Shown: positions 1 to 14,465, numbered from the stretch's first letter. The stretch is DNA of 18,048 nt from a bacterium (GCA_025774805.1 JALGZR010000078.1:1-18048); one strand, 5' to 3'. Made by a program: numbers and translations. The notes: a model not told the origin generated them from the sequence alone.

Positions 1-315
1 CTCATCATTCAGATTGTCTTCCAGGAGAAAGGTGAAGTTCCCGCCGCCCTTCTCGGGCGAAGGGGCCATCGGGTCCGCGGCAAACACCGCGCCGAGCCCT
101 TCGGCGTGGCACGACAGACAGACGTCGCTCGGCGTCGCGTCCCTCAGCAGATACGCGTTGCCTCCGTCTTCGTCCGGATCCACGAGGACGCCGTCTTGGC
201 TGTTGTGCATCGTGTGGCAGCCATTACAGTGCGCGACACCGGCATCGTGGAAGGCGAACCCAGTACTCGCGAGGGCGAGGCACCCTCCCAGGGCGATTAT
301 TAGGGCTTTCCGCAT
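1..315 (-). CDS. OmcS-like multihaem c-type cytochrome, N-terminal 105 residues (runs off the left edge)
   Basis: Minus-strand gene starting with ATG at 315, preceded by a strong AGGAGGT ribosome site at 321-327. Only 105 residues are visible and the reading frame is open to base 1. Residues 1-21 form a signal peptide (basic start, hydrophobic core, GFA before FHD). Two haem-binding motifs follow, CNGCH at 30-34 and CLSCH at 66-70. The mature start reads FHDAGVAHCNGCHTMHNS. From memory this closely resembles the start of Geobacter OmcS (FHSGGVAECEGCHTMHNS), as do the LL-x-x-AT and GGxF stretches around and after the second haem. OmcS is a six-haem protein that polymerises into extracellular filaments. 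The protein is exported, binds haem covalently and probably acts outside the cell. Whether it polymerises cannot be judged from this fragment; it could belong to a related non-filament multihaem family. Confidence 0.85.
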   Translation of the reverse strand, partial: MRKALIIALGGCLALASTGFAFHDAGVAHCNGCHTMHNSQDGVLVDPDEDGGNAYLLRDATPSDVCLSCHAEGLGAVFAADPMAPSPEKGGGNFTFLLEDNLNDE

Positions 316-734
316 TGAGCACCTCCTCATCGGGATCACGTATTCCTTTGTGGTTGGCCGGGCCGACCAGGTGAGGCCCCCGTGCCGCCGGAATCGCCGA
401 CGCAATAGTCCCGGGAGAAGCACCTCGAGCGATCATAGGGGCAGAGCCGCGCGCGCTCGATCGAGGCCGGGAGATCGGCGTGGTCAATCGCCAGATGTCG
501 CACAGGGCGCCTCCAGCCGTGCGAGGTTGTGCTCAACGTAACACGGCGATAGGGCTGTGGGTACAAGAACCGGGACTCAGGAAAGGGCGGGGTGCCCAAT
601 CCTCTGATCATGTGGCTGGTAACCCCGTGCTCACCTTCGGCCATGGCGAATCCGGCACCCTCACCGCCGACTCCCTCGCCGCCGGACTGGGATGCGTGTA
701 GCGGGTCGTTATCACCAGATCCGGGGGGCCGCGG
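316..734. other. Intergenic region upstream of the OmcS-like gene, no convincing gene
   Basis: These 419 bases separate the cytochrome start (315) from the stop of the decayed iron-sulfur gene (735). Short open frames exist on both strands but none shows a family motif, a sensible ribosome site or convincing codon use. For the cytochrome, the best -10 candidate is TATGAT on the minus strand (432-437), without a recognisable -35. I looked for a GEMM-type cyclic-dinucleotide riboswitch, known upstream of some Geobacter omc genes, and did not see its conserved core. Confidence 0.5.
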
Positions 735-1319
735 TCAGCGAGGCCTCCACTTCCGGCCGTAGAACAGGTTCTCGAAGAAGATCGCCGGACGGCGAGTGAA
801 TCCAAAGCGTCGGACCAGCCAGCGCACCATGTTGTGAAACCTGTTGTCGCGATGCGAGAACGGGCAGGAGGCCATGCAAATGCCGCAGTCCGTGCCGACG
901 CAGTGCCAGTATGCATAGCACGCCTCGGCGTGCGTCGGCCATTTGCTCACACCTCGCACGGCCACCTTACAGGAGAGCGACAGGGACCGCGAGGGGCAGT
1001 TCTCCGCACACTTTAAACAGACTTTGCGGAACGCATCTGCGCCGAGAGAAACCGGCTTCTCGTAGTCCACCGGGAAGTCCGTTCGACTCCTTCAGGCTCA
1101 CGTCATCCCGATGGCCGCGGGCGGCGCCCGGGTATTGACCCCCTCGCGCAGCGAGTCACGCAGCACCAACGCGCCGAAATTTGCGACCTCGGCGGGTCCG
1201 ATTCCCGCCGCCTCCGCCCGCGAGGGCCCGTAACTGTCGTGGTTGAGCGCCCTTGCGCGCTTACTGAAACCCGCGAGAAGGCTGTCTCCGGTGACCCGCT
1301 CCGTTCTGGAGCGAACGGT
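735..1319 (-). pseudogene. Decayed reductive-dehalogenase-like / double [4Fe-4S] protein, C-terminal remnant
   Basis: The intact part (1088-735) carries the C-terminal double-cluster region of RdhA-like proteins. It has TDFPVDYEKP, then CLKCAENCP, an EACYAYW stretch, CGICMASCPFSH, then HNMVRWLVRR and a final NLFYGRK. Three signs of decay are visible. In the family as I know it, a Cys follows the AF/DF pair; here it is Arg (CGC, one transition from TGC), so the first cluster lacks a ligand. The frame is closed by TGA at 1094-1092, just upstream. A separate minus frame (about 1319 to 1107) with strongly GC-rich third positions contains ARALNHDSYGPS and VLRDSLREGVNT but ends in TGA and has no start codon. 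The two pieces look like one gene with its middle deleted. Assignment of the C-terminal piece is firm; that of the upstream piece is tentative. GTG at 1070 could alternatively start a small 111-residue ferredoxin-like protein. Confidence 0.65.
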
Positions 1320-1367
1320 CGGTGGAAGGTCTCGAGCCGGGCGGGGCAGGGAGTATTTACGAAGAAA

Positions 1368-1398
1368 TTCGTGGCATCCACGAAACTTTTCGTATTAT
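1368..1398 (+). promoter_or_regulatory. Candidate promoter with overlapping 17-bp palindrome for the molybdoenzyme operon
   Basis: GTGGCA (1371-1376) and TATTAT (1393-1398, five of six matches to the -10 consensus) are 16 bases apart. A perfect inverted repeat, TTCGTGG-CAT-CCACGAA (1368-1384), covers the -35 element, where a repressor would block polymerase. The predicted transcript would start near 1405, which excludes the longest open frame start (GTG at 1322) for the first gene. Promoter assignment is by eye. Confidence 0.45.
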
Positions 1399-1486
1399 TC
1401 CGACGTTGAAAGAGGCATCACCGCCCGGACGATTCCCCTGGCGGAAGGCCGCCGGCACCCGAGGAGCGCTGGAAGGCAGGTGTCCC

Positions 1487-2212
1487 TTGTCCGTCGTGGA
1501 ACCCACGAGCCCGTCCGCCGAGCGCGACACCGTCGAGTCCGCGGCCTCGACCCCCGACCGCCCCCGCCGACTGACCATGGTGATCGATCTCGATCGCTGC
1601 ACCGGATGCCACGCCTGCGCGGTCGCGTGTAAGGCCGAGAACGGGGTCCGCCTCGGCGGCTTCCGATCCTGGGTCGAGAGGAAGGAGGCGGGACGCTATC
1701 CCGCCGTCACGCGCCACTTCCTGCCGCGCCTGTGCAATCACTGCGAGAGGCCGGCCTGCTTGAAGGTCTGTCCCGTCGGGGCAACCTACAAGCGGCCCGA
1801 CGGTCTCGTCGGCGTCGACAAGGACCGTTGCATCGGCTGCCGGTACTGCATGGTGGCCTGCCCTTACGGCGTCCGGTACTTCAATCCCCGCCCGGACCCC
1901 GCGGGTGCGCGGCTGTTCCCGGCGCGCACCCGCGGCACCGTGGACAAGTGCGACTTCTGCGCGCACCGGGTGGATCGCGGGGTCGTCCCGGCCTGCGTGA
2001 ACACGTGCCCGACCGGCGCCCGGCGATTCGGTGACGGGAACGACCCGGAGAGTGATGTCTACCGGGCCGCTCGCGCCCCGGACGCGACGACTCTCCTGCC
2101 GGCGCTCGGCACCGGCCCCTCGGTCTTCTACCGGGGAGGGGACCCGCGGTCCTTCGAGTCTGGCCGGCCCCCGACCGACGCCCACGCAAACGAAGGGAGG
2201 AGAGGAGCGTGA
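1487..2212 (+). CDS. Ferredoxin-type iron-sulfur subunit of a molybdoenzyme (PsrB/DmsB-like), four [4Fe-4S] clusters
   Basis: This 241-residue protein would pass electrons between the molybdopterin subunit and the membrane subunit encoded next to it. Four cysteine groups are complete: C38/C41/C44/C48, C83/C86/C91/C95, C115/C118/C121/C125 and C155/C158/C170/C174, the usual arrangement of the PsrB/DmsB/NrfC family. The cluster-I lead-in MVIDLDRCTGC is typical. There is no signal peptide, as expected for a subunit exported with a Tat partner. I chose TTG at 1487 because AGG of GGCAGG lies six bases upstream; GTG at 1496 and ATG at 1577 are alternatives, but the family normally has residues before MVIDLDR. 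The stop overlaps the next start by four bases (GTGA). Residues after about 185 form a low-complexity tail. Confidence 0.9.
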   Translation: MSVVEPTSPSAERDTVESAASTPDRPRRLTMVIDLDRCTGCHACAVACKAENGVRLGGFRSWVERKEAGRYPAVTRHFLPRLCNHCERPACLKVCPVGATYKRPDGLVGVDKDRCIGCRYCMVACPYGVRYFNPRPDPAGARLFPARTRGTVDKCDFCAHRVDRGVVPACVNTCPTGARRFGDGNDPESDVYRAARAPDATTLLPALGTGPSVFYRGGDPRSFESGRPPTDAHANEGRRGA

Positions 2213-3756
2213 GCATGCAGACCCTCCAGACGCGGGTCCGGCCCATCGTCGAGCCGGGGCTCGCCTCGGGAGTCGTGACCTTCCTGCTGGCCGGAGGAAC
2301 GGTCTACTGGCTCCGGCACTGCATCCGGATCCTCACGGAAGGCCTCGGAACGCTGGGAATCGACACCTACGGAGCGACGTGGGGAATCCTCGTCGCCAAT
2401 ACCGTTCACATCGTCGGGATCAGCCACGTCGGCATCGCGATCTCCGCCGCCGTGAGGGTCCTGCGGCTGGATGCCTACCGCAACATCGCCCGGACTGCGG
2501 AGATCGTGACCCTGCTCGCGCTCGGGCTGGCGGTGGTCAACCTCATGCTCCACGTCGGTCGGCCCGTACGATTTCTCACCAACGTCTATCTCTACGGTCG
2601 GTGGCACTCGCCCATGGTCTGGTCGATGACCGTCTTCACGCTCTACTTTCTGGCCAGTTCAGCCTACCTGTATCTGTCGATGCGACGGGATCTGTCGGTG
2701 ATGGCGGAGGCGGCACCCCGTTTCCGCGGGTTCTATCGCGCGCTGTCGTTGGGCTACCGCGACACCCCCGGAGAGCGGGAGCGCCACGAGCGGACGCTCT
2801 TCTGGCTGGCTCTCGCGCTTCTCCCGATCATGATCTCCGTTCACTCCGTGTACGGCCTTCTCTTCGGCATGATTTCCGCCCGGGCGGGCTGGTACAACCC
2901 GCTCCAGGCGCCCTACTTCGTGCTCGGGGCCGTCGTCTCGGGCTTCTCCGCCATCGTCGCCATCGCGGCTCTTCTCCGACGGGCCTACGGTTGGCGGACC
3001 CTTCTCCCGGATCGTCTGTTCCGGGTCTTCGGGATCTTCCTCGCTTTCGTGGTCTTTCTGTACCTCTACTTCATGCTGAGCGAGCACCTCACCGCACAGT
3101 ACCTACCCCCGACCGCGGAGCAGGGAGTCTCGAGCTCCCTGCTGACCGGACGGTTCTCGGCGGTCTTCTGGGCGACGACCGTCGCCGGGCTGGTCCTCCC
3201 CTTCCTCTTCCTGTTCGTCCAGGGAGTGAGGAGAAACGGGGTTCACGTGGGAGGTACCGCCGCGGCGGCGCTGCTCGTAAACGTTGGGCTCTGGATCAAG
3301 CGCTCTCTCCTCGTGGTCCCGTCACAGTATCACCCCCATCTCGCGCCGGCCCGTCCACCGGTCCCCTACGTCCCGACCCATACGGAGTGGGTGGCGGCGC
3401 TGGGATCGTACGTTGCCGCCGCCTTCGCGTTCGTCCTGCTGCTGCGGCTGGTGCCGCTGTTCGAGCTGCCCGGCACCGGACGGACGACCCCGACCGAGAC
3501 GAAAAGGCGCCGGCCGGCCGCGAGGCAAGCCGTGCTCCTGCTTACCCTCGCGGCGGGAGCGACGATGATCCTCTGGGGAGTGATGACCCGCGACGGTGAC
3601 TTCGCGCCTCTCAAGTGGTTGCTCGGGATCACCCTCCTCGTCGCCCTCCCCGTCGAGTCCTGTCTCATCGGCGACCGGAGGGAGGAGGAGGTCCGCGCGG
3701 AGGCGGCCGACCCGGGCGGGGTTCGACCCGCCGGAGGGAGTGGACGAGATGAGTGA
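2209..3756 (+). CDS. NrfD/PsrC-like integral membrane subunit, quinone-interacting
   Basis: A very hydrophobic 515-residue protein. Segments near 17-40, 57-84, 93-116, 133-157, 197-223, 234-257, 271-292, 313-339, 347-364, 392-413, 439-457 and 467-485 look membrane-spanning, about twelve in all. NrfD/PsrC proteins anchor complex iron-sulfur molybdoenzymes and exchange electrons with the quinone pool. Their common core has eight to ten helices, so this one carries extra C-terminal helices, more like the long ActC/HybB-type members. Its start is GTG, in a GTGA overlap with the ferredoxin gene, behind a GGAGGAGAGGA ribosome site. The last eight bases overlap the catalytic subunit gene. The C-terminal tail is charged and probably cytoplasmic. 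The family call is strong; which quinone it uses and in which direction it works cannot be read. Confidence 0.88.
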   Translation: MSMQTLQTRVRPIVEPGLASGVVTFLLAGGTVYWLRHCIRILTEGLGTLGIDTYGATWGILVANTVHIVGISHVGIAISAAVRVLRLDAYRNIARTAEIVTLLALGLAVVNLMLHVGRPVRFLTNVYLYGRWHSPMVWSMTVFTLYFLASSAYLYLSMRRDLSVMAEAAPRFRGFYRALSLGYRDTPGERERHERTLFWLALALLPIMISVHSVYGLLFGMISARAGWYNPLQAPYFVLGAVVSGFSAIVAIAALLRRAYGWRTLLPDRLFRVFGIFLAFVVFLYLYFMLSEHLTAQYLPPTAEQGVSSSLLTGRFSAVFWATTVAGLVLPFLFLFVQGVRRNGVHVGGTAAAALLVNVGLWIKRSLLVVPSQYHPHLAPARPPVPYVPTHTEWVAALGSYVAAAFAFVLLLRLVPLFELPGTGRTTPTETKRRRPAARQAVLLLTLAAGATMILWGVMTRDGDFAPLKWLLGITLLVALPVESCLIGDRREEEVRAEAADPGGVRPAGGSGRDE

Positions 3757-6061
3757 CCTGAACCGTCGTGAGTTCATCAGGCTGACCGCCCTCGGAACGG
3801 CGGCGGGACTGATGGGGGCCTCCGGAGCGTCCGGCACCGGCGACCGGGTGCTGGAGGGAAAGCTCCGGCTCGAGGGAGCGGGAAGGGACTTCTCGCTGGT
3901 GACGGGAAAGGAGAGGAAGGCGATCCCGTCGGCCTGCTGGCAGTGCGTGAACACGGACGCCAACATCGGCTACGTGGAGAACGGGCGCCTCGTGAAGATC
4001 GAGGGGAATCCCCGGATGCTCACCAGCCGGGGACGGCTCTGTGCCCGCGGTCAGGCCGGCATCAATCAGGTGTACAACCCGGATCGCCTTCTGCACCCGC
4101 TCGTCCGGACGGGGCGTCGGGGGGACGGCCGCTGGAAGCGTATCTCGTGGGACGAGGCGCTGGATCTCCTGGTGGAGGGAGGGGAGATCGCGGGGCGGGA
4201 GGTCAAGGGACTGCGGGCACTCCGGGAGGAGGGGACTCCGGAGAAGTACCTCTTTCATTACGGCCGCATGACGGGCTCCGACTGGCTCATCAACAACTAC
4301 TACTTCATGCCGACCTACGGCTCCGGCACGGTGGGAGATCACAACTCGATCTGCGTGGCGGCCGGCGGAGTGGCGCGCCGCTACACGGGTGACACCCGCG
4401 GGGCGACCGGGTGGAAGGACTCGCGGATCATCCTGGACTTCGGCGCCAGCGTCCTGGAGGCCGGATTCGGACACCTCACGTCGACCCGGGAGTGCACCGA
4501 GGCCCTGGTCCGGGGCGCGAAGATGTACGTCTTCGACGTCCGGCTGTCCAACACGGCGGCCAAGGCCACCGAATGGGTGCCGCTGAAGCCGGGCACGGAT
4601 CTCGCGGTCATCCTGGCCCTGAGCCGGGTCCTCCTGGAGGAAGAGCTCGCGGACGAGACGTTCGTGGAAGACCTGACCAACGTGTCGATGAGCGAGCTTC
4701 GGAGCCACCTGGCCCCGTACACCCCCGAGTGGGCGGAGGCGACGAGCGGGGTTCCGGCCGAGAGAATCCGCTCCATCGCCCGCGAGTTCGGCACCACGAA
4801 GCCCGGCATGTGCCTCGGGGGCCGCGGACTGTTCATGCACTACAACGGGGTGCAGGCCATGCGGGCCCTCGACATGCTCCGGGCCCTGTCGGGCAACGTG
4901 GGGCCGGCCGGGGAGCGGAGCCCGCGCCCCCGATGGAACTACGCATTCGAGTTTCCGCAGCCCGAGGAGGAGCCGAAGACCCTCGACGTGCTGACCGGCG
5001 AGGCCGATGCCTACCTCTTTACCGGTTACGGTGTGTCGCACCAGATCGTGGACCGGATCGACCGCGGACCGGAGCGACCGGACATCTACCTGGTCTACTG
5101 CCACAACCCGGTGTACTCCAACGGCGAGTGCGACCGAAACGCCCGGGTCTACCGGGACGAGCAGAAGATCCCGTTCCTGGTCGCCGTGGACATCGCCATG
5201 AGCGAGACGACGGAGCTGGCCGATCTCATCCTGCCCGATGCCACCTATCTCGAGCGCTGGACCCTGGAGGGAACCGCGTCCCCGGAGGGGGTGCCGGAGT
5301 ACTTCATCCGGCAGCCGATGCACGCGCCGCTGGGAGAGGCGAGGAATTGGATCGACGTGCTCTGCGAGATCGGCCGCCGTCTCGACCTGGGGCTCGGCTT
5401 CGACTCGGCCGAGCAGTTCGTGCGCGAGACCTGCGACAACACCCCGGGTGTCAAGGAGGCGGGCGGGTTCGAGTACATGAAGGAGCACGGCATCTGGCAC
5501 GACCGGGAGAGCGCGAAAGCGCCGTACGAGCGCGAGCCGGTGACCCTGAAGTCCGAGGACCTCGAGGCGGCGGGGTTCGGCGGACTGCCGACGTGGATGA
5601 GCCACCCCGACCACGAGGAGATGGAGGCGGACGATCTGATCCTGACCACGTTCAAGGTCCCGACCCAGACCCACTCCCGGACCCAGGGCTGCAAGTGGCT
5701 CACCGAGATCTTCCACGAGAACCCGGCCTGGATCCACCCGACGGCCGCCGCCGAACGCGGAGTCGGGGACGGCGATCCCGTCCGCGTGAGATCCGGCGTC
5801 GGCGAGATCACGACCCGGGCCCGGATCACGGAGGGGGTGCACCCGGGAACCGTGGCGATCGCCCACCACGCCGGCCACTGGGCATGGGGATACTACGCAT
5901 CGGGTCGCCGGGCCCCCGGACACGTCGCCGAGGCCGACACCCGGAACAAATGGTGGAAGTCCAACGGCACCCACGTGAACCGCGTCATCCCCTGCGTGGG
6001 GGACCCCATCGCGGGCTCGATGTGCTGGATGGACACGGTCGTGAAGGTGGAGAGGGCGTAG
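3749..6061 (+). CDS. Molybdopterin oxidoreductase catalytic subunit (PsrA/PhsA-like, DMSO-reductase superfamily), Tat-exported
   Basis: A 770-residue protein that begins with a twin-arginine signal (RREFIRLTALGTAAGLMG), so the active site should be periplasmic. The N-terminal cluster motif is C63-x2-C66-x3-D70-x27-C98. Spacing is exactly that of the family, but the third ligand is Asp (GAC, 3956-3958) instead of Cys. VENGRLVKIEGNP and RLCARGQAG follow the family pattern. Cys202 in HNSICVAA is the likely molybdenum ligand, as in PsrA/PhsA/formate-dehydrogenase types. Downstream, VFDVRLSNTAAKATEWVPLKPGTD and LILPDATYLERW belong to the bis-MGD binding core, and the last ~120 residues form the dinucleotide-binding domain. 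ATG at 3749 overlaps the NrfD gene by eight bases. Substrate is unknown: polysulfide, thiosulfate, tetrathionate or another oxyanion are possible, and the enzyme could run oxidatively. Confidence 0.92.
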   Translation: MSDLNRREFIRLTALGTAAGLMGASGASGTGDRVLEGKLRLEGAGRDFSLVTGKERKAIPSACWQCVNTDANIGYVENGRLVKIEGNPRMLTSRGRLCARGQAGINQVYNPDRLLHPLVRTGRRGDGRWKRISWDEALDLLVEGGEIAGREVKGLRALREEGTPEKYLFHYGRMTGSDWLINNYYFMPTYGSGTVGDHNSICVAAGGVARRYTGDTRGATGWKDSRIILDFGASVLEAGFGHLTSTRECTEALVRGAKMYVFDVRLSNTAAKATEWVPLKPGTDLAVILALSRVLLEEELADETFVEDLTNVSMSELRSHLAPYTPEWAEATSGVPAERIRSIAREFGTTKPGMCLGGRGLFMHYNGVQAMRALDMLRALSGNVGPAGERSPRPRWNYAFEFPQPEEEPKTLDVLTGEADAYLFTGYGVSHQIVDRIDRGPERPDIYLVYCHNPVYSNGECDRNARVYRDEQKIPFLVAVDIAMSETTELADLILPDATYLERWTLEGTASPEGVPEYFIRQPMHAPLGEARNWIDVLCEIGRRLDLGLGFDSAEQFVRETCDNTPGVKEAGGFEYMKEHGIWHDRESAKAPYEREPVTLKSEDLEAAGFGGLPTWMSHPDHEEMEADDLILTTFKVPTQTHSRTQGCKWLTEIFHENPAWIHPTAAAERGVGDGDPVRVRSGVGEITTRARITEGVHPGTVAIAHHAGHWAWGYYASGRRAPGHVAEADTRNKWWKSNGTHVNRVIPCVGDPIAGSMCWMDTVVKVERA

Positions 6062-6066
6062 CTCCG

Positions 6067-6729
6067 ATGGACCCGGTCACCGCCACCGCGCCGCGGGAAT
6101 CGGAGGCGGAGTCGGCCCGCCGACGGGGCTCGATCTACGGGCTTCTGGCCCGCTTCTTCCGCCGCGAGCCGGACGCGCGGGTGGTCGGAGGACTGCGCGA
6201 GCCCGGAGTGTTCGAGAGCCTCGTGGAGGCGGGAATGTGCCTGGACCGGGCCGAGCTGATCGAGCCGCCGGTTCCGGACGTGGTCGAGACGCTTGCCGCC
6301 GACTACACCGCTCTCTTCCTCGCGCCCTCGACCCGCATTCCGCTAAACGAGTCCGTCCATCGGCCGGAGGACGGCTCGCTCCTCGGGGAGTCGACCCTCC
6401 AGGTCAAGGAGTGCCTCCGGACCCTGGGGCTGAGGATCGACGAGAGATGGGGCGACCTTCCCGACCACCTCTCCATCGAGCTGGAGATCATGCAGTGGCT
6501 GGCCGAAGGCGAGGCGGATCACCGAGGGTCCGCCGCGCCGGAGGTCGCGAACGAGCTCGCCGTCCGCCAGGAGGCGTTCCTCGATGGGCATCTCGTCCGC
6601 TGGGTGCCGGATCTCTGCGACCGGATCGAGGCGCGGGCCGTGACCCGGTTCTACGGGGAGGTCGCCCGGGTCACCCGCGCCTTCGTCCTCGCCGACGCAC
6701 GGAGGGCGCGAGGCGAGTCCGGCGCCTGA
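6067..6729 (+). CDS. TorD/DmsD-family molybdoenzyme chaperone
   Basis: A 220-residue soluble protein starting at ATG 6067, five bases after the catalytic subunit stop. The family signature is clear: LAADYTALFLAP at about residues 77-88, then LNESVHRPEDGSLLGEST, and PDHLSIELEIMQWLAEGE, the PDHxxxELExM helix of TorD proteins. It is mostly helical with no signal peptide or membrane segment. Such chaperones bind the Tat signal of the catalytic subunit, protect it and help insert the molybdenum cofactor before export, and their genes usually sit beside their client, as here. It is the last gene of the operon: its stop is five bases from the stop of the convergent cytochrome gene, with no room for a conventional hairpin terminator between them. 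Confidence 0.88.
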   Translation: MDPVTATAPRESEAESARRRGSIYGLLARFFRREPDARVVGGLREPGVFESLVEAGMCLDRAELIEPPVPDVVETLAADYTALFLAPSTRIPLNESVHRPEDGSLLGESTLQVKECLRTLGLRIDERWGDLPDHLSIELEIMQWLAEGEADHRGSAAPEVANELAVRQEAFLDGHLVRWVPDLCDRIEARAVTRFYGEVARVTRAFVLADARRARGESGA

Positions 6730-6734
6730 TCCGG

Positions 6735-7781
6735 TCAGTCGTCGTCCACGTTCACTTCCCCGTTGATGTGCAGATCGGGGGCGATGAACACGTCATTCTC
6801 GTCGATCACCATGCCGTGACAGCGGTGGCAGTCCTCGACGCCGGGACCGAACGGGTGCTCGTCGCTGATCGGCGGCAGGCCATGGCACGCGCCGCACTCG
6901 TTCCATGTACCGTCCACCTCCGTCCAGACGGGCTCGCCGCTGCGATGGCAATCGGTCGCGGCGCACGAGCTCGTGGCGAAGTCGTACCGTGCCGCACCGC
7001 CCGCGATTTCCGAGAACGTCACGTCGGCCGTCGCCGGTGTGTCGTCGATGTGCCCGGGATCGTCCCACGAGGCGGGGACGAGATGGCAGGCACGGCAGGG
7101 CACTGCTGCGGAAAAGCCGGAGGGGGCTCCGAGGTGCGTCTGGTGAGCGCCCACCCCGGGCGAGGATGTGGCGACGTCTCCCTCGAGGTCTTCCGGCGGG
7201 GCCCAGGATGCGGGGACCCCGGGATCACCTTCCGAGTCCCCATGGCAGACGTTGCAGGCCACCGGTCCGCCGTTGGCCGCGTCATGGCAACCGACCGTGC
7301 TGCACGAGCTGCCGAAGGTCGGGGAGGCGGGGAGCGGGGAGCGGCGCGTCGCCGTGCCCGGGCTTTCCGGTTCCGGATGACAGACGAAGCAGCGCCCGAG
7401 ATCCCAGTGGATCGCGCGCAGGTACGCCGGGTGCTCGTCCTCGGCGATCGTGAAGCCGACCTGGTGCTCGGTTGCCGTGTGGCATCCGTAGCAGGAGCGC
7501 TCGATGCCGCCGTTCGCGCCGACCTCCTGTCCGCGAAGGTCCGCTCCATGGCAGGGGGTGCACGCGGCGAATGTATAGTCGTTCGCAGCCAGCCAGGCGC
7601 CGTGTTCCGCCGCGTCCGCGAACGGATGGAGGTTGCCGCTGCCGATCCGGTAGTCCTCGTCGATCGATGTGCCGCAGCCCGTGACGAACCGGAGAAGGGC
7701 GATCGCGCCGAAGAGGGCACAGGTGGCGCGGTAGGGGGGAGTGATCGCGGCCCCTCTTCTGTCGTTCGCTCCGCTAATCAT
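6735..7781 (-). CDS. Nine-haem CxxxxCH/CxxCH-type cytochrome c, predicted lipoprotein
   Basis: A 348-residue protein from ATG 7781, overlapping the upstream cytochrome gene by eight bases. The N-terminus (ALFGAIALLRFVTGC) ends in a VTGC lipobox, so Cys36 would be lipidated. It has seven CxxCH motifs (C74, C97, C131, C176, C229, C296, C318) and two wide-spaced CxxxxCH motifs, CSTVGCH (C160) and CAATDCH (C273), giving nine haems. The repeated CNVCHG/HLGAP/CHLVPASWxDPGH pattern matches the CxxxxCH/CxxCH family abundant in Geobacter-type metal reducers, which supply outer-surface members of porin-cytochrome complexes. As the last gene of the barrel operon it is the best candidate for the outward-facing terminal cytochrome. 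The C-terminus is acidic (VNVDDD). A longer open frame upstream of 7781 is only antisense-like read-through in the neighbouring gene. Confidence 0.88.
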   Translation of the reverse strand: MISGANDRRGAAITPPYRATCALFGAIALLRFVTGCGTSIDEDYRIGSGNLHPFADAAEHGAWLAANDYTFAACTPCHGADLRGQEVGANGGIERSCYGCHTATEHQVGFTIAEDEHPAYLRAIHWDLGRCFVCHPEPESPGTATRRSPLPASPTFGSSCSTVGCHDAANGGPVACNVCHGDSEGDPGVPASWAPPEDLEGDVATSSPGVGAHQTHLGAPSGFSAAVPCRACHLVPASWDDPGHIDDTPATADVTFSEIAGGAARYDFATSSCAATDCHRSGEPVWTEVDGTWNECGACHGLPPISDEHPFGPGVEDCHRCHGMVIDENDVFIAPDLHINGEVNVDDD

Positions 7782-8736
7782 CGTGGCACCGTGCGCAGGT
7801 GTGGTCGGTGGAATCCACATCATGACATGACAGACAGGTCTCCGGGAATGCCTTGGCCTCGTCCACGTGGGCGCCCCCGGCGAGATCGTTCGCGAACTCG
7901 GGTCCGAACTCGTGCGGCACGGGCACGAGGGCGCGATGGCACTCCGTGCAACTGCGACGCGTCTCGTGGCACACGAGACAATCCTGCCCGAAGGAAGCCT
8001 CGGCCCAGTGCTCGTGGAGCCAGGCGGCGCCGTGCGGGCTGCCGTCCAGAAGGACCCCTTGGTGACAGGCGTCACAGCTCGCCTGCGCGTGACACGATGC
8101 GCAATCCGATGTGCCCACCGCCGCCTCCAGACCGTGATCACGACGCCAGTCGCCCTGCCCGTGGTCGGGGGGAATCGGGTCGCGGCCGAGGTGACAGGCT
8201 CCGCAGTCGAGCGGGCCGCGATGAGCCAGGTGGCACTGCTGACAATCGCTCATCGTGGGAATGAGCGGCTCCGCGCCCCTCGTGCCCTCCGCTGCGGTCA
8301 GGTCACCGTGGCAGAGCTCACAGACGCCGGACTCCCCCGTGTGGTCCCTGTGGGCGAAGCCCTCGTACCGACCGAGCCTCAGCGGCACTGCCTCCGGCTC
8401 TTCGGGGTTCCGGTGGCACGTGCCGCAGGAGTCGTCCTCCTCCAGATCGTGACAGTTCTCACAGGTTTCGTGGTCGGGAACCGATCGCCCGCGGATGCCG
8501 AGCTCCGTGACTCCCGCATGGCACTCCTGGCAGGTCATCTCGCCTTCGACGACGTGCAACGGGTGATCGAACCGGAGGGGGCCGGCGCCGGGATCGGGAA
8601 TGCCGCCCTCCGGGCCGTCGGCCGCTGCGAGAGCAGGTATCGTGACACGGAGGAGAGCCATCGGGATCAAGAGCGCCGCGAGCAGTGCCCGGACCGTCAT
8701 GACGAACGCCGTCCGTCGATCCGGCCTGAGACTCAT
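7774..8736 (-). CDS. Twelve-haem periplasmic cytochrome c
   Basis: A 320-residue protein with twelve CxxCH motifs: C69, C92, C104, C139, C165, C178, C212, C221, C253, C263, C301 and C314. Residues 1-38 form a signal peptide (basic start, hydrophobic RALLAALLIPMALL core, IPALAAA cleavage region), with no lipobox, so a soluble periplasmic location is expected. Histidine pairs such as FDHPLHVVEG before the first haem are reminiscent of c3/c7 cytochromes with bis-His ligation. The ATG at 8736 overlaps the barrel gene stop in an ATGA arrangement, and its own stop overlaps the next cytochrome. In porin-cytochrome complexes a periplasmic multihaem protein plugs the barrel from inside; size, export signal and position all fit that role. 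It could be shifted to the internal Met13 start without changing this. Confidence 0.9.
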   Translation of the reverse strand: MSLRPDRRTAFVMTVRALLAALLIPMALLRVTIPALAAADGPEGGIPDPGAGPLRFDHPLHVVEGEMTCQECHAGVTELGIRGRSVPDHETCENCHDLEEDDSCGTCHRNPEEPEAVPLRLGRYEGFAHRDHTGESGVCELCHGDLTAAEGTRGAEPLIPTMSDCQQCHLAHRGPLDCGACHLGRDPIPPDHGQGDWRRDHGLEAAVGTSDCASCHAQASCDACHQGVLLDGSPHGAAWLHEHWAEASFGQDCLVCHETRRSCTECHRALVPVPHEFGPEFANDLAGGAHVDEAKAFPETCLSCHDVDSTDHTCARCHDD

Positions 8737-10055
8737 CGCGAAGCTCCCGCGCTGTCGAAGCGCCAGGTGACTCCGGCCCGCGCGCGCCGGTCCTGGTCGA
8801 ACTGCGGGGTGCGGTAGACCTGGAACTCGCCGTGGACCGTGAGCGCCGGGTAGTGCGGCGGTGTGTAACGAGTGCCCACGCGGACCGTGACGATGTCGCC
8901 GCTGTCCAGCTCGAACGCGTCCCACTCGGTACTCATGACCGATCCGTAGGCGTGCACGGTGAAACCGCGGCCGGGGGTCGCGCGCAGGCTGGCCCAGGGG
9001 CCCGCCACCCGGGAGTGCCCGCCTCCGCTGAAGCGATAGCCGATGCGACCCCAGGGGCTCGTCAATGCCGGGCCACCCCGAAAGCCGGTCTCTCCGCCGG
9101 CCTCGAGAACCACGCCGTCGAACCCCGCGGCCCAGCCCCCGGCTCCGAGATAGCGATCCAAACCGGCGCGAACGCGGTGCGAGGAGGGAACGTCGAATTC
9201 ACTGAACCACGTGTACTCGTTGCGCGACGGCTTGAGCGCACCGACCTCGGCGAGCACGCCCCAGTCCGCGCTGCGATAGCGCGCCCGGCTGACGACCTTC
9301 CGCAGGAGGTCGCCCCGCGGCCGAAAGTGAGCGACGTTGAGCAGCGTGAGTGAGCGTCCCCAGCGGGACCGGGTGCCGACCCCGACGAGATGGCGCGTGA
9401 CACCCTCCTCGCGCCGCTGCCGAACGTAGGTCAGGTCGATATCGTGGACGGCCGAGAAGAACCGGCGGCGCGGCGCGTATCGGAGCTCGGCGCCGACGCT
9501 GAACGCCTCGTCGGGCTCTTCCAGTTCGAATTCGCGGCTGCGTGGTCCCGCCAGGCCGGCGAACAAGCCGACCCGGAGACGGCGGGAGCGGAGGAGGAGG
9601 TCCACGCCGTCGAACACGCCGACCATCACGCCCCGGTGCAGGAAGAACCGGCCCGCGCGCACGTCCGTGCGTGACCGGAGGCCACCGTGACGCAAGAAGC
9701 CCTTGAGGAGGCGACCGCGCCCTTCGCCGGAGAAGTCGTCGTCGAAACGACTCAGGTGACTGACCGTGCCGTGCAGAGACCAGCGCTCTCCGGGTCCGTA
9801 CAGGGAGAGACGGCCCGTCTGCTCCAGCGCGAGATGATCGGCTCGGGCCGCGTCCTCGTAGCCGAACGCCTCCAGGCCATAGGATCCGAGGAAGCGGAAA
9901 GGGGGAGACCCGGAGATCGGACGGCCGGCGGGGGGGCCCGGGGCCTCACCGTGCTCCGCGGAATCGGCCGCCGTTCCCGCGGAAAGCCCGCCGGCGCGCA
10001 GAAGATGGAGAAGGAGAACGACGCAGGATGCGGCCGACCGACGGCTGACGGACAT
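8733..10055 (-). CDS. Outer-membrane beta-barrel protein, porin of a cytochrome conduit
   Basis: A 440-residue protein from ATG 10055 with a GGGAGGG ribosome site a few bases upstream. Residues 1-29 form a signal peptide. The rest is alternating polar/hydrophobic segments separated by charged turns, for example TDVRAGRFFLHRG, RLRVGLFAGLAG and GFTVHAYGSVMS. The final strand AGVTWRF resembles a barrel-terminal signal, followed by a short tail. There is no cysteine in the mature part and no haem motif. No specific family could be recognised from sequence alone; it is shorter than MtrB (~700 residues) and within the range of the Geobacter conduit porins. The decisive evidence is context: it heads an operon whose next two genes, overlapping by four and eight bases, are a periplasmic and a lipoprotein multihaem cytochrome. 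The role as an electron-conduit sheath is inferred. Confidence 0.75.
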   Translation of the reverse strand: MSVSRRSAASCVVLLLHLLRAGGLSAGTAADSAEHGEAPGPPAGRPISGSPPFRFLGSYGLEAFGYEDAARADHLALEQTGRLSLYGPGERWSLHGTVSHLSRFDDDFSGEGRGRLLKGFLRHGGLRSRTDVRAGRFFLHRGVMVGVFDGVDLLLRSRRLRVGLFAGLAGPRSREFELEEPDEAFSVGAELRYAPRRRFFSAVHDIDLTYVRQRREEGVTRHLVGVGTRSRWGRSLTLLNVAHFRPRGDLLRKVVSRARYRSADWGVLAEVGALKPSRNEYTWFSEFDVPSSHRVRAGLDRYLGAGGWAAGFDGVVLEAGGETGFRGGPALTSPWGRIGYRFSGGGHSRVAGPWASLRATPGRGFTVHAYGSVMSTEWDAFELDSGDIVTVRVGTRYTPPHYPALTVHGEFQVYRTPQFDQDRRARAGVTWRFDSAGASR

Positions 10056-10152: not shown

Positions 10153-10180
10153 ACTCTACCACGATGAGATTCGATGCCAA
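10153..10180 (-). promoter_or_regulatory. Candidate promoter of the barrel-cytochrome operon
   Basis: On the minus strand TTGGCA (10180-10175) and TAGAGT (10158-10153) are separated by 16 bases, matching sigma-70-type elements at five and four of six positions. Transcription would begin near 10146 and leave a leader of about 90 bases before the barrel gene. Nothing else in 10056-10283 looks like a gene. Confidence 0.4.
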
Positions 10181-12604: not shown

Positions 12605-14029
12605 TCACCTCACCCGCACGACTTTCTGCGTCCTCATCTCCCCGCCGACCTCCAGTCCCAGAAAGTAGATGCCGGCCGCGGCCTTGGCCGCCCGATCGTC
12701 CCTCCCGTCCCAGCTCGTCACGTGCCGGCCGGCATCGCGCCGTCCTTCGTCCAGGGATCGTACGACTCTGCCGACCACGTCATACACCGCAAGCCGGACA
12801 TCGGCGGCTTCGGTCAGGAAGTACCTCACGCTCGTGGAGGAGTCGAACGGATTGGGCCGGACGTTCAAGCTCGGCCCGCCCGCCCCGGCGACGTCTCCGA
12901 CGCCGGTGGGAGTGCCGGCCGCCTGTGCCTGGACGGCGACGACGTTCACGTTCGTGCCGGTCACGGGGAAGCTGCCCGCGACGGTGTCGGTCGTCAGGTC
13001 GATCCGGTAGACGAGATTGCCCGCGGTCGTGGTTCCGCCGGCCACGTAGGCGGTCTCCTGATCGTCGAGAATGTCGACGTCCCGGGGGTCGGCCGTGGCG
13101 TCCAGGAACAGGGCCGTGATCGCGCCACTCCCGGTCTCGATGACGTACGCCTCGTGGCTGTCCTCGCACGCGACGACGAGCTTGTCACCGTCTTCCGTGA
13201 TGTCGATGCCCCACGGATCGTCCCCCACGGACCACACGTTGACCTGGGTCAGCCGGCCCGGATCGATGACCCGGACCTGATCGGTACCGCGATCGGTCAC
13301 GTAGATGTCCTGTCCATCGGGTGAGACGACCAGCTGCCAGAGGCTGTTGCCGAGGGTGACCTGGTTCAGAATGGCGGACCCGTCCGGGGCGATCTCGTAG
13401 AGATCGTCCCCGTACCAGTCCACCAGATAGAAGTTGCCGCTCACGGGATCGAGGGCGATGTTGCCCGCGCCGAGGTACGTCGTGGGGACGGACAGGGAGT
13501 CGGTGACCGCGTAGGTCGTCGTGCTGATGATCTTGATCTCCTCGGTGTCGCGACACGGAACCAGCGCCTTCGATCCATCCTTCGAAAACGCGATCGAGAC
13601 CGGGTACTCGCCCACGGCGATCCGATGGCTGATCGTGTTCGTCGCGCGGTCGATCACGATCACCCCGTCTCCGGACGCGCCGGGGATCCAGACTTCGGTG
13701 CCCGCCGGATTCAGGGTGGCGTCGTAGGGGTAGTTCCCCTCGGGGAGCAGCCCGATCGCCGGTCCGGCGACGTGCGTGTCGAGATCGAACGGTGCGCAGT
13801 TGTCCGACGTGCTGCAGCCGGCGAACCCGTCGTTCGGGCGGCGGAGCGAGCGAGGACCGGCCGGCACGAGATCACCGGGGAGCGACTCCTCCGGACGCAC
13901 GGTGAGGATCGTGCCGCGGATGGGATCGAGAATCGTCGTGTCGTCGATACGGATCGGGTCGATCCCGAAGCCGACGGATGCGAAGAGACAGGGGAGAAGC
14001 ACCGTAAGAGCCAGGGCCGAGCGTCGCAT
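12605..14029 (-). CDS. Secreted YVTN-type beta-propeller protein with FlgD-like/type-A sorting C-terminus
   Basis: A 474-residue protein from ATG 14029, with GGAGG six bases upstream. Residues 1-22 are a signal peptide. About 95-375 contain repeated propeller blades of the YVTN/NHL kind: GTEVWIPGASGDGVIVIDRATN, EYPVSIAFSKDGSKALVPCRDTEEIKII, WQLVVSPDGQDIYVTDRGTDQVRVID and similar, roughly 40-45 residues each, enough for about six or seven blades. Residues 388-474 (NVRPNPFDSSTSVRYFL, LAVYDVVGRVVRSL, AAGIYFLGLEVGG) form the FlgD-Ig-like domain that often ends secreted proteins in FCB-group bacteria, where related domains act as type IX secretion signals. C72/C78 before the propeller may form a disulfide. 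It is probably surface or extracellular; ligand unknown. It has no haem motif, so a direct part in electron transfer is not indicated. Confidence 0.85.
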   Translation of the reverse strand: MRRSALALTVLLPCLFASVGFGIDPIRIDDTTILDPIRGTILTVRPEESLPGDLVPAGPRSLRRPNDGFAGCSTSDNCAPFDLDTHVAGPAIGLLPEGNYPYDATLNPAGTEVWIPGASGDGVIVIDRATNTISHRIAVGEYPVSIAFSKDGSKALVPCRDTEEIKIISTTTYAVTDSLSVPTTYLGAGNIALDPVSGNFYLVDWYGDDLYEIAPDGSAILNQVTLGNSLWQLVVSPDGQDIYVTDRGTDQVRVIDPGRLTQVNVWSVGDDPWGIDITEDGDKLVVACEDSHEAYVIETGSGAITALFLDATADPRDVDILDDQETAYVAGGTTTAGNLVYRIDLTTDTVAGSFPVTGTNVNVVAVQAQAAGTPTGVGDVAGAGGPSLNVRPNPFDSSTSVRYFLTEAADVRLAVYDVVGRVVRSLDEGRRDAGRHVTSWDGRDDRAAKAAAGIYFLGLEVGGEMRTQKVVRVR

Positions 14030-14044
14030 GGAAGCCTCCGGGCG

Positions 14045-14100
14045 CGGGAGTCGAGTCAGCAGTCGACCTACCGGGTGATTATGCCAGAAGACGACTCCCG
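14045..14100 (-). promoter_or_regulatory. Candidate promoter of the propeller gene, flanked by a 9-bp inverted repeat
   Basis: On the minus strand TGG-CATAAT (14086-14078) fits an extended -10; the -35 is poor. A perfect inverted repeat, CGGGAGTCG (14045-14053) and CGACTCCCG (14092-14100), brackets the element with 38 bases between arms. Only one arm would be in the transcript, so if meaningful it works at DNA level. Confidence 0.35.
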
Positions 14101-14151
14101 GGCGTGCCACCGCGATCTCCGGCGCTTCCCCCCGCGGCCCCCGCTCCCGCC

Positions 14152-14181
14152 TTGCTCCCCCACGGGCTACCTCTCTATATT
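14152..14181 (+). promoter_or_regulatory. Candidate promoter of the moaDEA operon
   Basis: TTGCTC (14152-14157) and TATATT (14176-14181) are 18 bases apart, in an otherwise very GC-rich stretch. Transcription would start near 14188, downstream of the ATG at 14184, which supports GTG at 14211 as the moaD start. Confidence 0.45.
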
Positions 14182-14210
14182 GGATGATCATCCGAGCGGG
14201 GGGAGCTGCG

Positions 14211-14465
14211 GTGCCCAAGCGAACGATCCGGGTGGAGCTGCACGCGATGGCGGCCGACCTTGCCGGGGCCGGCAGCGCCGATCTCCAGGTCGAAGCCGAC
14301 GCCACCGGGGACGACGTGAAGAGGGCGCTGGCCGCCCTTCACCCCGCTCTGGAAGAGATTCTGTCGGTTTCGGCCCTCGCCACGGAGGTCGAGTACCTGC
14401 ACGACTCGGCCCGCGTCGGCGACTCCGCCCGATTCCACCTCGTGCCGCCCGTCAGCGGGGGGTAG
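14211..14465 (+). CDS. moaD: MoaD/ThiS-family sulfur carrier, small subunit of molybdopterin synthase
   Basis: An 84-residue ubiquitin-like protein that ends in Gly-Gly, the C-terminus that is adenylated and thiocarboxylated to donate sulfur for molybdopterin. The fold pattern fits MoaD: first strand RTIRVELHAMAADLAG, middle helix DDVKRALAALHPALEEIL, and the final FHLVPPVSGG stretch with the usual acidic/aromatic lead. GTG at 14211 was chosen because GGGGGGAG lies just upstream and the likely transcription start is downstream of the ATG at 14184. The stop is seven bases ahead of moaE, its partner subunit. ThiS is an alternative for an isolated gene, but the moaE and moaA neighbours settle it. 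Confidence 0.9.
   Translation: MPKRTIRVELHAMAADLAGAGSADLQVEADATGDDVKRALAALHPALEEILSVSALATEVEYLHDSARVGDSARFHLVPPVSGG

What the first reader, a model, noticed from the sequence alone, without database searches (positions are those of the whole stretch)
6735..10055. Complete three-gene porin-cytochrome conduit: barrel, 12-haem periplasmic and 9-haem lipoprotein cytochromes
Three genes overlap in series (ATGA at 8736-8733; eight bases at 7781-7774): an exported beta-barrel, a soluble 12-CxxCH cytochrome and a lipobox-bearing cytochrome with nine haem sites. This composition defines trans-outer-membrane electron conduits in Geobacter and Shewanella. The porin is not recognisable to me as MtrB, OmbB or Ext types, and the order barrel-periplasmic-surface with 12+9 haems may be a distinct conduit class. 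Seen: motifs, signals, overlaps. Inferred: function.
Basis: partly seen in the sequence, partly recalled or inferred. Interest (0 to 1): 0.85.

Follow-up and report, generated by a model that had tools for sequence, protein, structure and literature searches.

The report
Porin-cytochrome electron conduit of Pcc type
Three overlapping genes encode a membrane pore and two haem-rich proteins that together most likely carry electrons across this bacterium's outer membrane, a known kind of device found here in a little-studied branch that has no family model in the databases searched.

Summary
On the minus strand lie an exported 440-aa beta-barrel, a soluble cytochrome with 12 CxxCH motifs and a lipoprotein cytochrome with 9 haem sites (7 CxxCH + 2 CxxxxCH), with the stated overlaps. 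The barrel has no Pfam or NCBIfam match, but it is not an orphan. Relatives occur in 15 of 39 genomes of one other phylum (one record is named Candidatus Electryonea clarkiae, hence 'Electryoneota'), and all 14 loci long enough to show it keep the order porin, periplasmic cytochrome, surface cytochrome. A profile of the barrel finds relatives in 36 of 386 sampled genomes. A multihaem cytochrome gene lies beside 55 of 57 of the loci examined; the other two are cut by contig ends. AlphaFold gives a 22-strand barrel. Strand number, haem numbers and gene order fall within the published range of Pcc (OmbB-OmaB-OmcB type) conduits. The same genome encodes an 18-haem NapC-type inner-membrane cytochrome whose relatives sit beside this conduit in Electryoneota. 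Best reading: a Pcc-type trans-outer-membrane electron conduit, a new member of a known kind forming its own subfamily, possibly acquired across phyla. It is not MtrCAB, and no new conduit class is needed. Electron direction and extracellular partner are unknown.

The parts
8733..10055 (-). Outer-membrane beta-barrel (conduit porin), 440 aa, first gene
   Evidence: Signal-like N-terminus; AF2 22 strands, pLDDT 77.6, pTM 0.68; Foldseek/VIA matches are all OM barrels; no Pfam/NCBIfam hit; homologues next to multihaem cytochromes
7774..8736 (-). Periplasmic/barrel-inserted dodecahaem c-type cytochrome, 320 aa
   Evidence: 12 CxxCH; Cytochrome_C7 repeats, Pfam E 9e-17; conserved in 14 loci; 11 non-motif His conserved as candidate distal ligands
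6735..7781 (-). Outer-membrane lipoprotein c-type cytochrome, 348 aa, 7 CxxCH + 2 CxxxxCH
   Evidence: TIGR01904 above cut-off; lipobox VTGC, invariant Cys; homologues third in the cluster
8733..8736 (-). ATGA stop/start overlap, porin to 12-haem gene
   Evidence: Sequence; same 4-nt overlap in 9 of 11 relatives, 1 nt in the other two
7774..7781 (-). 8-nt overlap, 12-haem gene to lipoprotein gene
   Evidence: Sequence
10153..10180 (-). Possible promoter (TTGGCA-16-TAGAGT) upstream of the porin
   Evidence: Consensus scan only; 2 sites found in the region against 0.2 expected

Best explanation
The three genes encode a Pcc-type porin-cytochrome electron conduit. Shown by sequence or prediction: an exported barrel of about 22 strands, a 12-haem cytochrome translationally coupled to it, and a lipoprotein cytochrome with 9 haem sites, kept together in this order in other genomes. 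Inferred: the 12-haem protein threads through the barrel as an insulated haem wire, and the 9-haem lipoprotein caps it on the cell surface and exchanges electrons with an extracellular partner. Also inferred: the periplasmic side is fed from the quinol pool by the 18-haem NapC-type inner-membrane cytochrome encoded elsewhere in the same genome (contig C38), in a locus that also encodes a Rieske protein, cytochrome b and a 9-haem cytochrome. Outward flow (respiration of a mineral, humic, electrode or partner cell) is the more likely direction.
For: Anatomy and overlaps. Barrel of 22 strands, matched only to OM barrels. Triplet conserved in all 14 complete loci of Electryoneota genomes. Profile hits in 36/386 genomes; multihaem ORF beside 20/20 enlarged loci and 55/57 loci. 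Negative controls OmpF, OmpC and FhuA not hit. Nearly full-length profile homology with cytochrome-associated porins, Ext-like ones included. Eleven conserved candidate distal His for 12 haems. In relatives the conduit is next to NapC-type 17/18-haem and 19-haem cytochromes, one 19-haem protein carrying a cytochrome-b561-like domain. Own genome has the NapC-type relative, E 1.3e-109 to one located about 0.5 kb from a conduit, and a 4-haem relative; Rieske/cyt b neighbours. Published Pcc ranges fit.
Against: No biochemistry. No model of the complex could be made, and the 12-haem model is poor (pLDDT 43.6), so threading is inferred. The nearest solved sequence relatives of the 12-haem protein are soluble periplasmic c7-type nanowires (GSU1996 type, 3ov0). 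The inner-membrane partner lies on another contig.
Confidence: 0.87

Rival explanations
1. Same conduit, opposite direction: electrons are taken up from an extracellular donor (Fe(II), sulfide minerals, a partner cell) and delivered to the quinone pool.
For: Conduits are reversible in principle; CymA- and CbcL-type partners are reported in both Fe(III) reducers and Fe(II) oxidisers (PMC6295460). The conduit lies convergent to a Mo-oxidoreductase/NrfD operon that could act either way.
Against: A dedicated surface lipoprotein cytochrome is typical of Fe(III)-reducing Pcc clusters; Fe(II)-oxidising mtr clusters often lack it (PMC4245776). The genome-wide partner set was not reconstructed.
Confidence: 0.15
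2. The conduit serves the neighbouring molybdoenzyme operon (1322-6729 +), as part of one extracellular respiratory system.
For: Adjacent, convergent gene ends; a profile-matched porin in another genome (L071, L072) is followed directly by a 6-haem cytochrome, a MopB protein and an Fe-S protein.
Against: The operon is on the opposite strand and its NrfD subunit makes it an inner-membrane quinone enzyme; no homologue of it was found at the conduit in the Electryoneota loci.
Confidence: 0.08
3. Not a conduit: an ordinary solute porin that happens to lie beside a soluble GSU1996-like periplasmic electron store and an unrelated lipoprotein cytochrome.
For: The 12-haem protein matches c7 repeats and the GSU1996 structure best.
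Against: Conserved three-gene order across phyla, conserved overlap, 55/57 co-occurrence with multihaem genes, no match to any solute-porin family by sequence.
Confidence: 0.04

Closest known systems
Pcc conduits: OmbB-OmaB-OmcB of Geobacter sulfurreducens and relatives (Shi et al. 2014, PMC4245776)
   Same: Gene order porin, periplasmic cytochrome, outer cytochrome; barrel of 18-22 strands; periplasmic cytochrome of 5-14 haems; atypical haem motifs in some outer cytochromes
   Different: OmaB 8 haems and OmcB 12, here 12 and 9; too divergent for Pfam/NCBIfam models; named OmbB not compared directly
Ignavibacterium album cluster IALB_1837-1839 (PMC4245776)
   Same: Described there as a distant Pcc group: porin, 14-haem 400-aa periplasmic cytochrome, outer cytochrome with atypical haem motifs. 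Loci L081 and L083 here have this build and match the window porin and lipoprotein
   Different: 14 rather than 12 haems; in L081 the lipoprotein gene precedes the porin. That L081/L083 are from Ignavibacteriota is inferred
ExtABCD and ExtEFG conduits of Geobacter (Otero et al. 2018, PMC6148476)
   Same: Dodecahaem periplasmic cytochrome, barrel and lipoprotein cytochromes; the profile of the window's porin type matches Ext-like porins in a Geobacteraceae-like family
   Different: Different gene order and different outer cytochromes
MtrCAB of Shewanella
   Same: Three-part conduit, works in the same way
   Different: No sequence match to the MtrB/PioB or DmsE/MtrA models; about 22 rather than 26 strands; 12 rather than 10 haems

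Membership tests
Pcc porin-cytochrome conduit | Porin-like outer-membrane barrel of 18-22 strands | tested here: met
   AF2 22 strands, pLDDT 77.6; range from PMC4245776
Pcc porin-cytochrome conduit | Adjacent periplasmic c-type cytochrome with 5-14 haems | tested here: met
   12 CxxCH, 4-nt overlap
Pcc porin-cytochrome conduit | Adjacent outer-membrane lipoprotein multihaem cytochrome (most but not all clusters) | tested here: met
   Lipobox, 7+2 haem motifs; surface exposure itself not testable
Pcc porin-cytochrome conduit | Sequence homology of porin to known Pcc/Ext porins | tested here: inconclusive
Pcc porin-cytochrome conduit | Electron transfer across a membrane | not testable with these tools
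   Needs proteoliposomes or mutants
MtrCAB | Porin matches MtrB/PioB family TIGR03509 | tested here: not met
   No NCBIfam match at E 0.1 for the window porin, none for relative L018; no PDB sequence hit, MtrB included, with the profile at E 10
MtrCAB | 26-strand barrel with decahaem MtrA (TIGR03508 type) | tested here: not met
   22 strands predicted; 12 haems; no TIGR03508 match for the 12-haem protein
ExtABCD | Order dodecahaem, barrel, two lipoprotein cytochromes | tested here: not met
   Order here is barrel, dodecahaem, one lipoprotein
GSU1996-type periplasmic nanowire cytochrome | Free-standing soluble dodecahaem of four c7 repeats | tested here: inconclusive
   c7 repeats present, but coupled to a porin gene; structure not resolved

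The most novel reading that the evidence does not exclude
The window and Electryoneota clusters form a separate conduit subfamily with a modular wire. Barrels of nearly constant size carry 9, 11 or 12 haems because haems of the region around haems 4-6 (residues about 139-182) come and go, which would place that block outside the barrel. The whole pathway, including an 18-haem NapC-type quinol oxidase, would have moved between phyla as a set of unlinked genes.
Probability: 0.25. Interest if true: 0.6.

Novelty: new member of a known kind. Interest (0 to 1): 0.4.

Why it matters
It extends Pcc-type extracellular electron transfer to lineages with almost no cultured members. It supplies a barrel family, unseen by Pfam or NCBIfam, whose presence reliably marks neighbouring multihaem cytochromes: 55 of 57 loci. 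A profile of it would reveal electron conduits that current HMM surveys may miss. The variable haem number within nearly constant barrels offers a natural test of which haems lie inside the membrane.

Tried and rejected
MtrB membership: no sequence match, and the own genome gave no TIGR03509 match, though no control genome rang either. MtrB is not among the top 50 Foldseek or VIA rows, which proves nothing, since generic barrels fill the list. Structure of the 12-haem protein: pLDDT 43.6, unusable. First genome-contig scan with the single porin found nothing; the alignment scan gave 8 named contigs. Contig misbinning considered: rejected because a VWA gene on the same contig is 71-75% identical to copies in three genomes of the same family and GC and tetranucleotides agree with other contigs. 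Terminators: none found. Literature: the one held paper naming Electryoneota with cytochromes does not mention porins or extracellular electron transfer.

Full report
What is there. The three genes are present as described, on the minus strand: porin 10055-8733 (440 aa, no haem motif), 12-haem cytochrome 8736-7774 (320 aa, exactly 12 CxxCH) and lipoprotein 7781-6735 (348 aa, 7 CxxCH plus CSTVGCH and CAATDCH). The lipoprotein stop codon lies only 5 bases from that of the convergent TorD-like gene ending at 6729.

Family searches. The porin matches nothing in Pfam or NCBIfam and no PDB sequence convincingly. The 12-haem protein matches Cytochrome_C7 repeats. Among solved structures it is closest to GSU1996-type c7 nanowires, with weak matches to MtrF, MtrC and MtrA. 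The lipoprotein passes the curated cut-off of TIGR01904, the CxxxxCH/CxxCH cytochrome domain, and weakly matches MtrC/MtrF domains II/IV.

Relatives. In the window's own family the porin has one distant hit (G002, E 1.6e-12) and otherwise none. In the phylum of G011, 15 of 39 genomes have it, best E 1.5e-101 and 43% identity. One named contig of that group is Candidatus Electryonea clarkiae (L035), so I call the group Electryoneota; this is inferred from that record. All loci long enough to show it carry the order porin, multihaem cytochrome (7-12 CxxCH), multihaem lipoprotein-type cytochrome (14 of 14; L030 is cut by the contig end). The 4-nt ATGA-type coupling of porin to cytochrome is kept in 9 of 11 relatives and is 1 nt in two. 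Among 9 close sequences, 11 non-motif His of the 12-haem protein are conserved in at least 8, enough for nearly full bis-His ligation.

Wider family. A profile of 12 porins (A1) finds relatives in 36 of 386 sampled genomes. All 20 enlarged loci from that search have a multihaem cytochrome gene beside the porin. Over 57 loci have one within the roughly 1.5 kb fetched on each side; the two exceptions are truncated contigs. OmpF, OmpC and FhuA are not hit, so the profile does not simply see any barrel. One family with hits (f235) is rich in TIGR01904 cytochromes and shows extABCD-like and extEFG-like gene orders; I take it as Geobacteraceae-like, unnamed. hhalign of A1 against an alignment of 15 porins, most of them from f235, gives 99.6%, E 4.5e-25, and against other cytochrome-linked porins 100%, E 1.3e-52, both over almost the full length. 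The claim that the porin is unlike Ext types therefore fails at profile level.

Structure. With 9 aligned sequences AlphaFold gives a 22-strand barrel, mean pLDDT 77.6, pTM 0.68. Foldseek and VIA-align list only outer-membrane barrels: ushers, OprD types and TonB-dependent receptors (VIA Z up to 19.9). The fold says nothing about function. The 12-haem model is unusable.

Pathway. In Electryoneota the conduit sits beside 17/18-haem cytochromes (the one tested, in L018, has a NapC/NirT, NrfH-like N-terminus), 19-haem cytochromes (the one tested carries a cytochrome-b561-like C-terminus, CbcL-like), 9-haem lipoproteins and 4-haem c554-like cytochromes. In the window's genome an 18-haem NapC-type protein lies on contig C38 (9126-10817), with 4-nt overlaps between the cytochrome b, 9-haem and 18-haem genes and a Rieske gene just upstream. 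It matches Electryoneota proteins at E down to 1.4e-115 and same-family genomes at best 1e-35. In G117 its relative ends about 0.5 kb before the conduit porin. A 4-haem relative lies on C11. Quinol oxidation feeding the conduit is therefore plausible, though the genes are unlinked.

Origin. On a porin + 12-haem tree the window row lies inside Electryoneota (support 100/99). Holding the 11 core Electryoneota rows together without it is rejected, AU p 0.0014; exclusion from the nearest 8 rows is not rejected, p 0.09. Contig membership is sound. Transfer between phyla is likely, but long branches and compositional bias (the window row fails the composition test) leave doubt.

Comparison with the known. 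Pcc porins have 18-22 predicted strands, periplasmic cytochromes 5-14 haems and outer cytochromes 1-15 CxxCH plus atypical motifs; ombB-omaB-omcB has the same gene order (PMC4245776). ExtA and ExtG of Geobacter are dodecahaem (PMC6148476). A 2020 survey separates MtrB, OmbB, ExtB/E and ExtI porin families and reports OmbB-like conduits in Ignavibacteria (PMC7399161). The window cluster is thus a new member of the Pcc kind and not a new class.

Haem number. In L017 and L027 the cytochrome has 9 haems, lacking haems 4-6 of the window protein, while their porins are of normal size. I infer that this block is periplasmic; it is testable.

Limits. No complex model, no named OmbB or Ext sequence, no phenotype.

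Noticed in passing
L071 (5267-1097, 12354-6930, minus) and L072 (4066-9214, plus), genome G414: Three closely similar clusters of a related porin, a 6-haem cytochrome, a MopB protein of about 950-970 aa and a 205-aa Fe-S protein: a conduit porin apparently serving a molybdoenzyme, possibly outside the cell.
   Followed up: partly
window 1322-6729 (+): Operon Fe-S protein, NrfD, Tat-type MopB (PhsA/PsrA-like, below cut-offs) and TorD-like chaperone, convergent with the conduit; substrate unknown.
   Followed up: partly
L141 9126-13672 (-) (contig C38 of the window's genome): Rieske protein, cytochrome b, 9-haem and 18-haem NapC-type cytochromes in one locus: a candidate quinol-oxidising complex with a very long haem chain.
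   Followed up: partly
window 735-1070 (-): Short ORF with two ferredoxin-like cysteine clusters resembling the C-terminus of reductive-dehalogenase-like proteins; may be a fragment.
   Followed up: no
window 1-423 (-): Cytochrome with doubled CxxCH motif running off the contig end; similar haem-motif sequences lie near the start of contig C38 (77-880).
   Followed up: no
L028 11027-13132 (+): In one Electryoneota genome the lipoprotein cytochrome of the triplet is enlarged to 24 CxxCH + 1 CxxxxCH.
   Followed up: no
window 12605-14305 (-): Beta-propeller protein with a FlgD/T9SS-like C-terminal sorting domain, suggesting an FCB-group host with type IX-like secretion.
   Followed up: no
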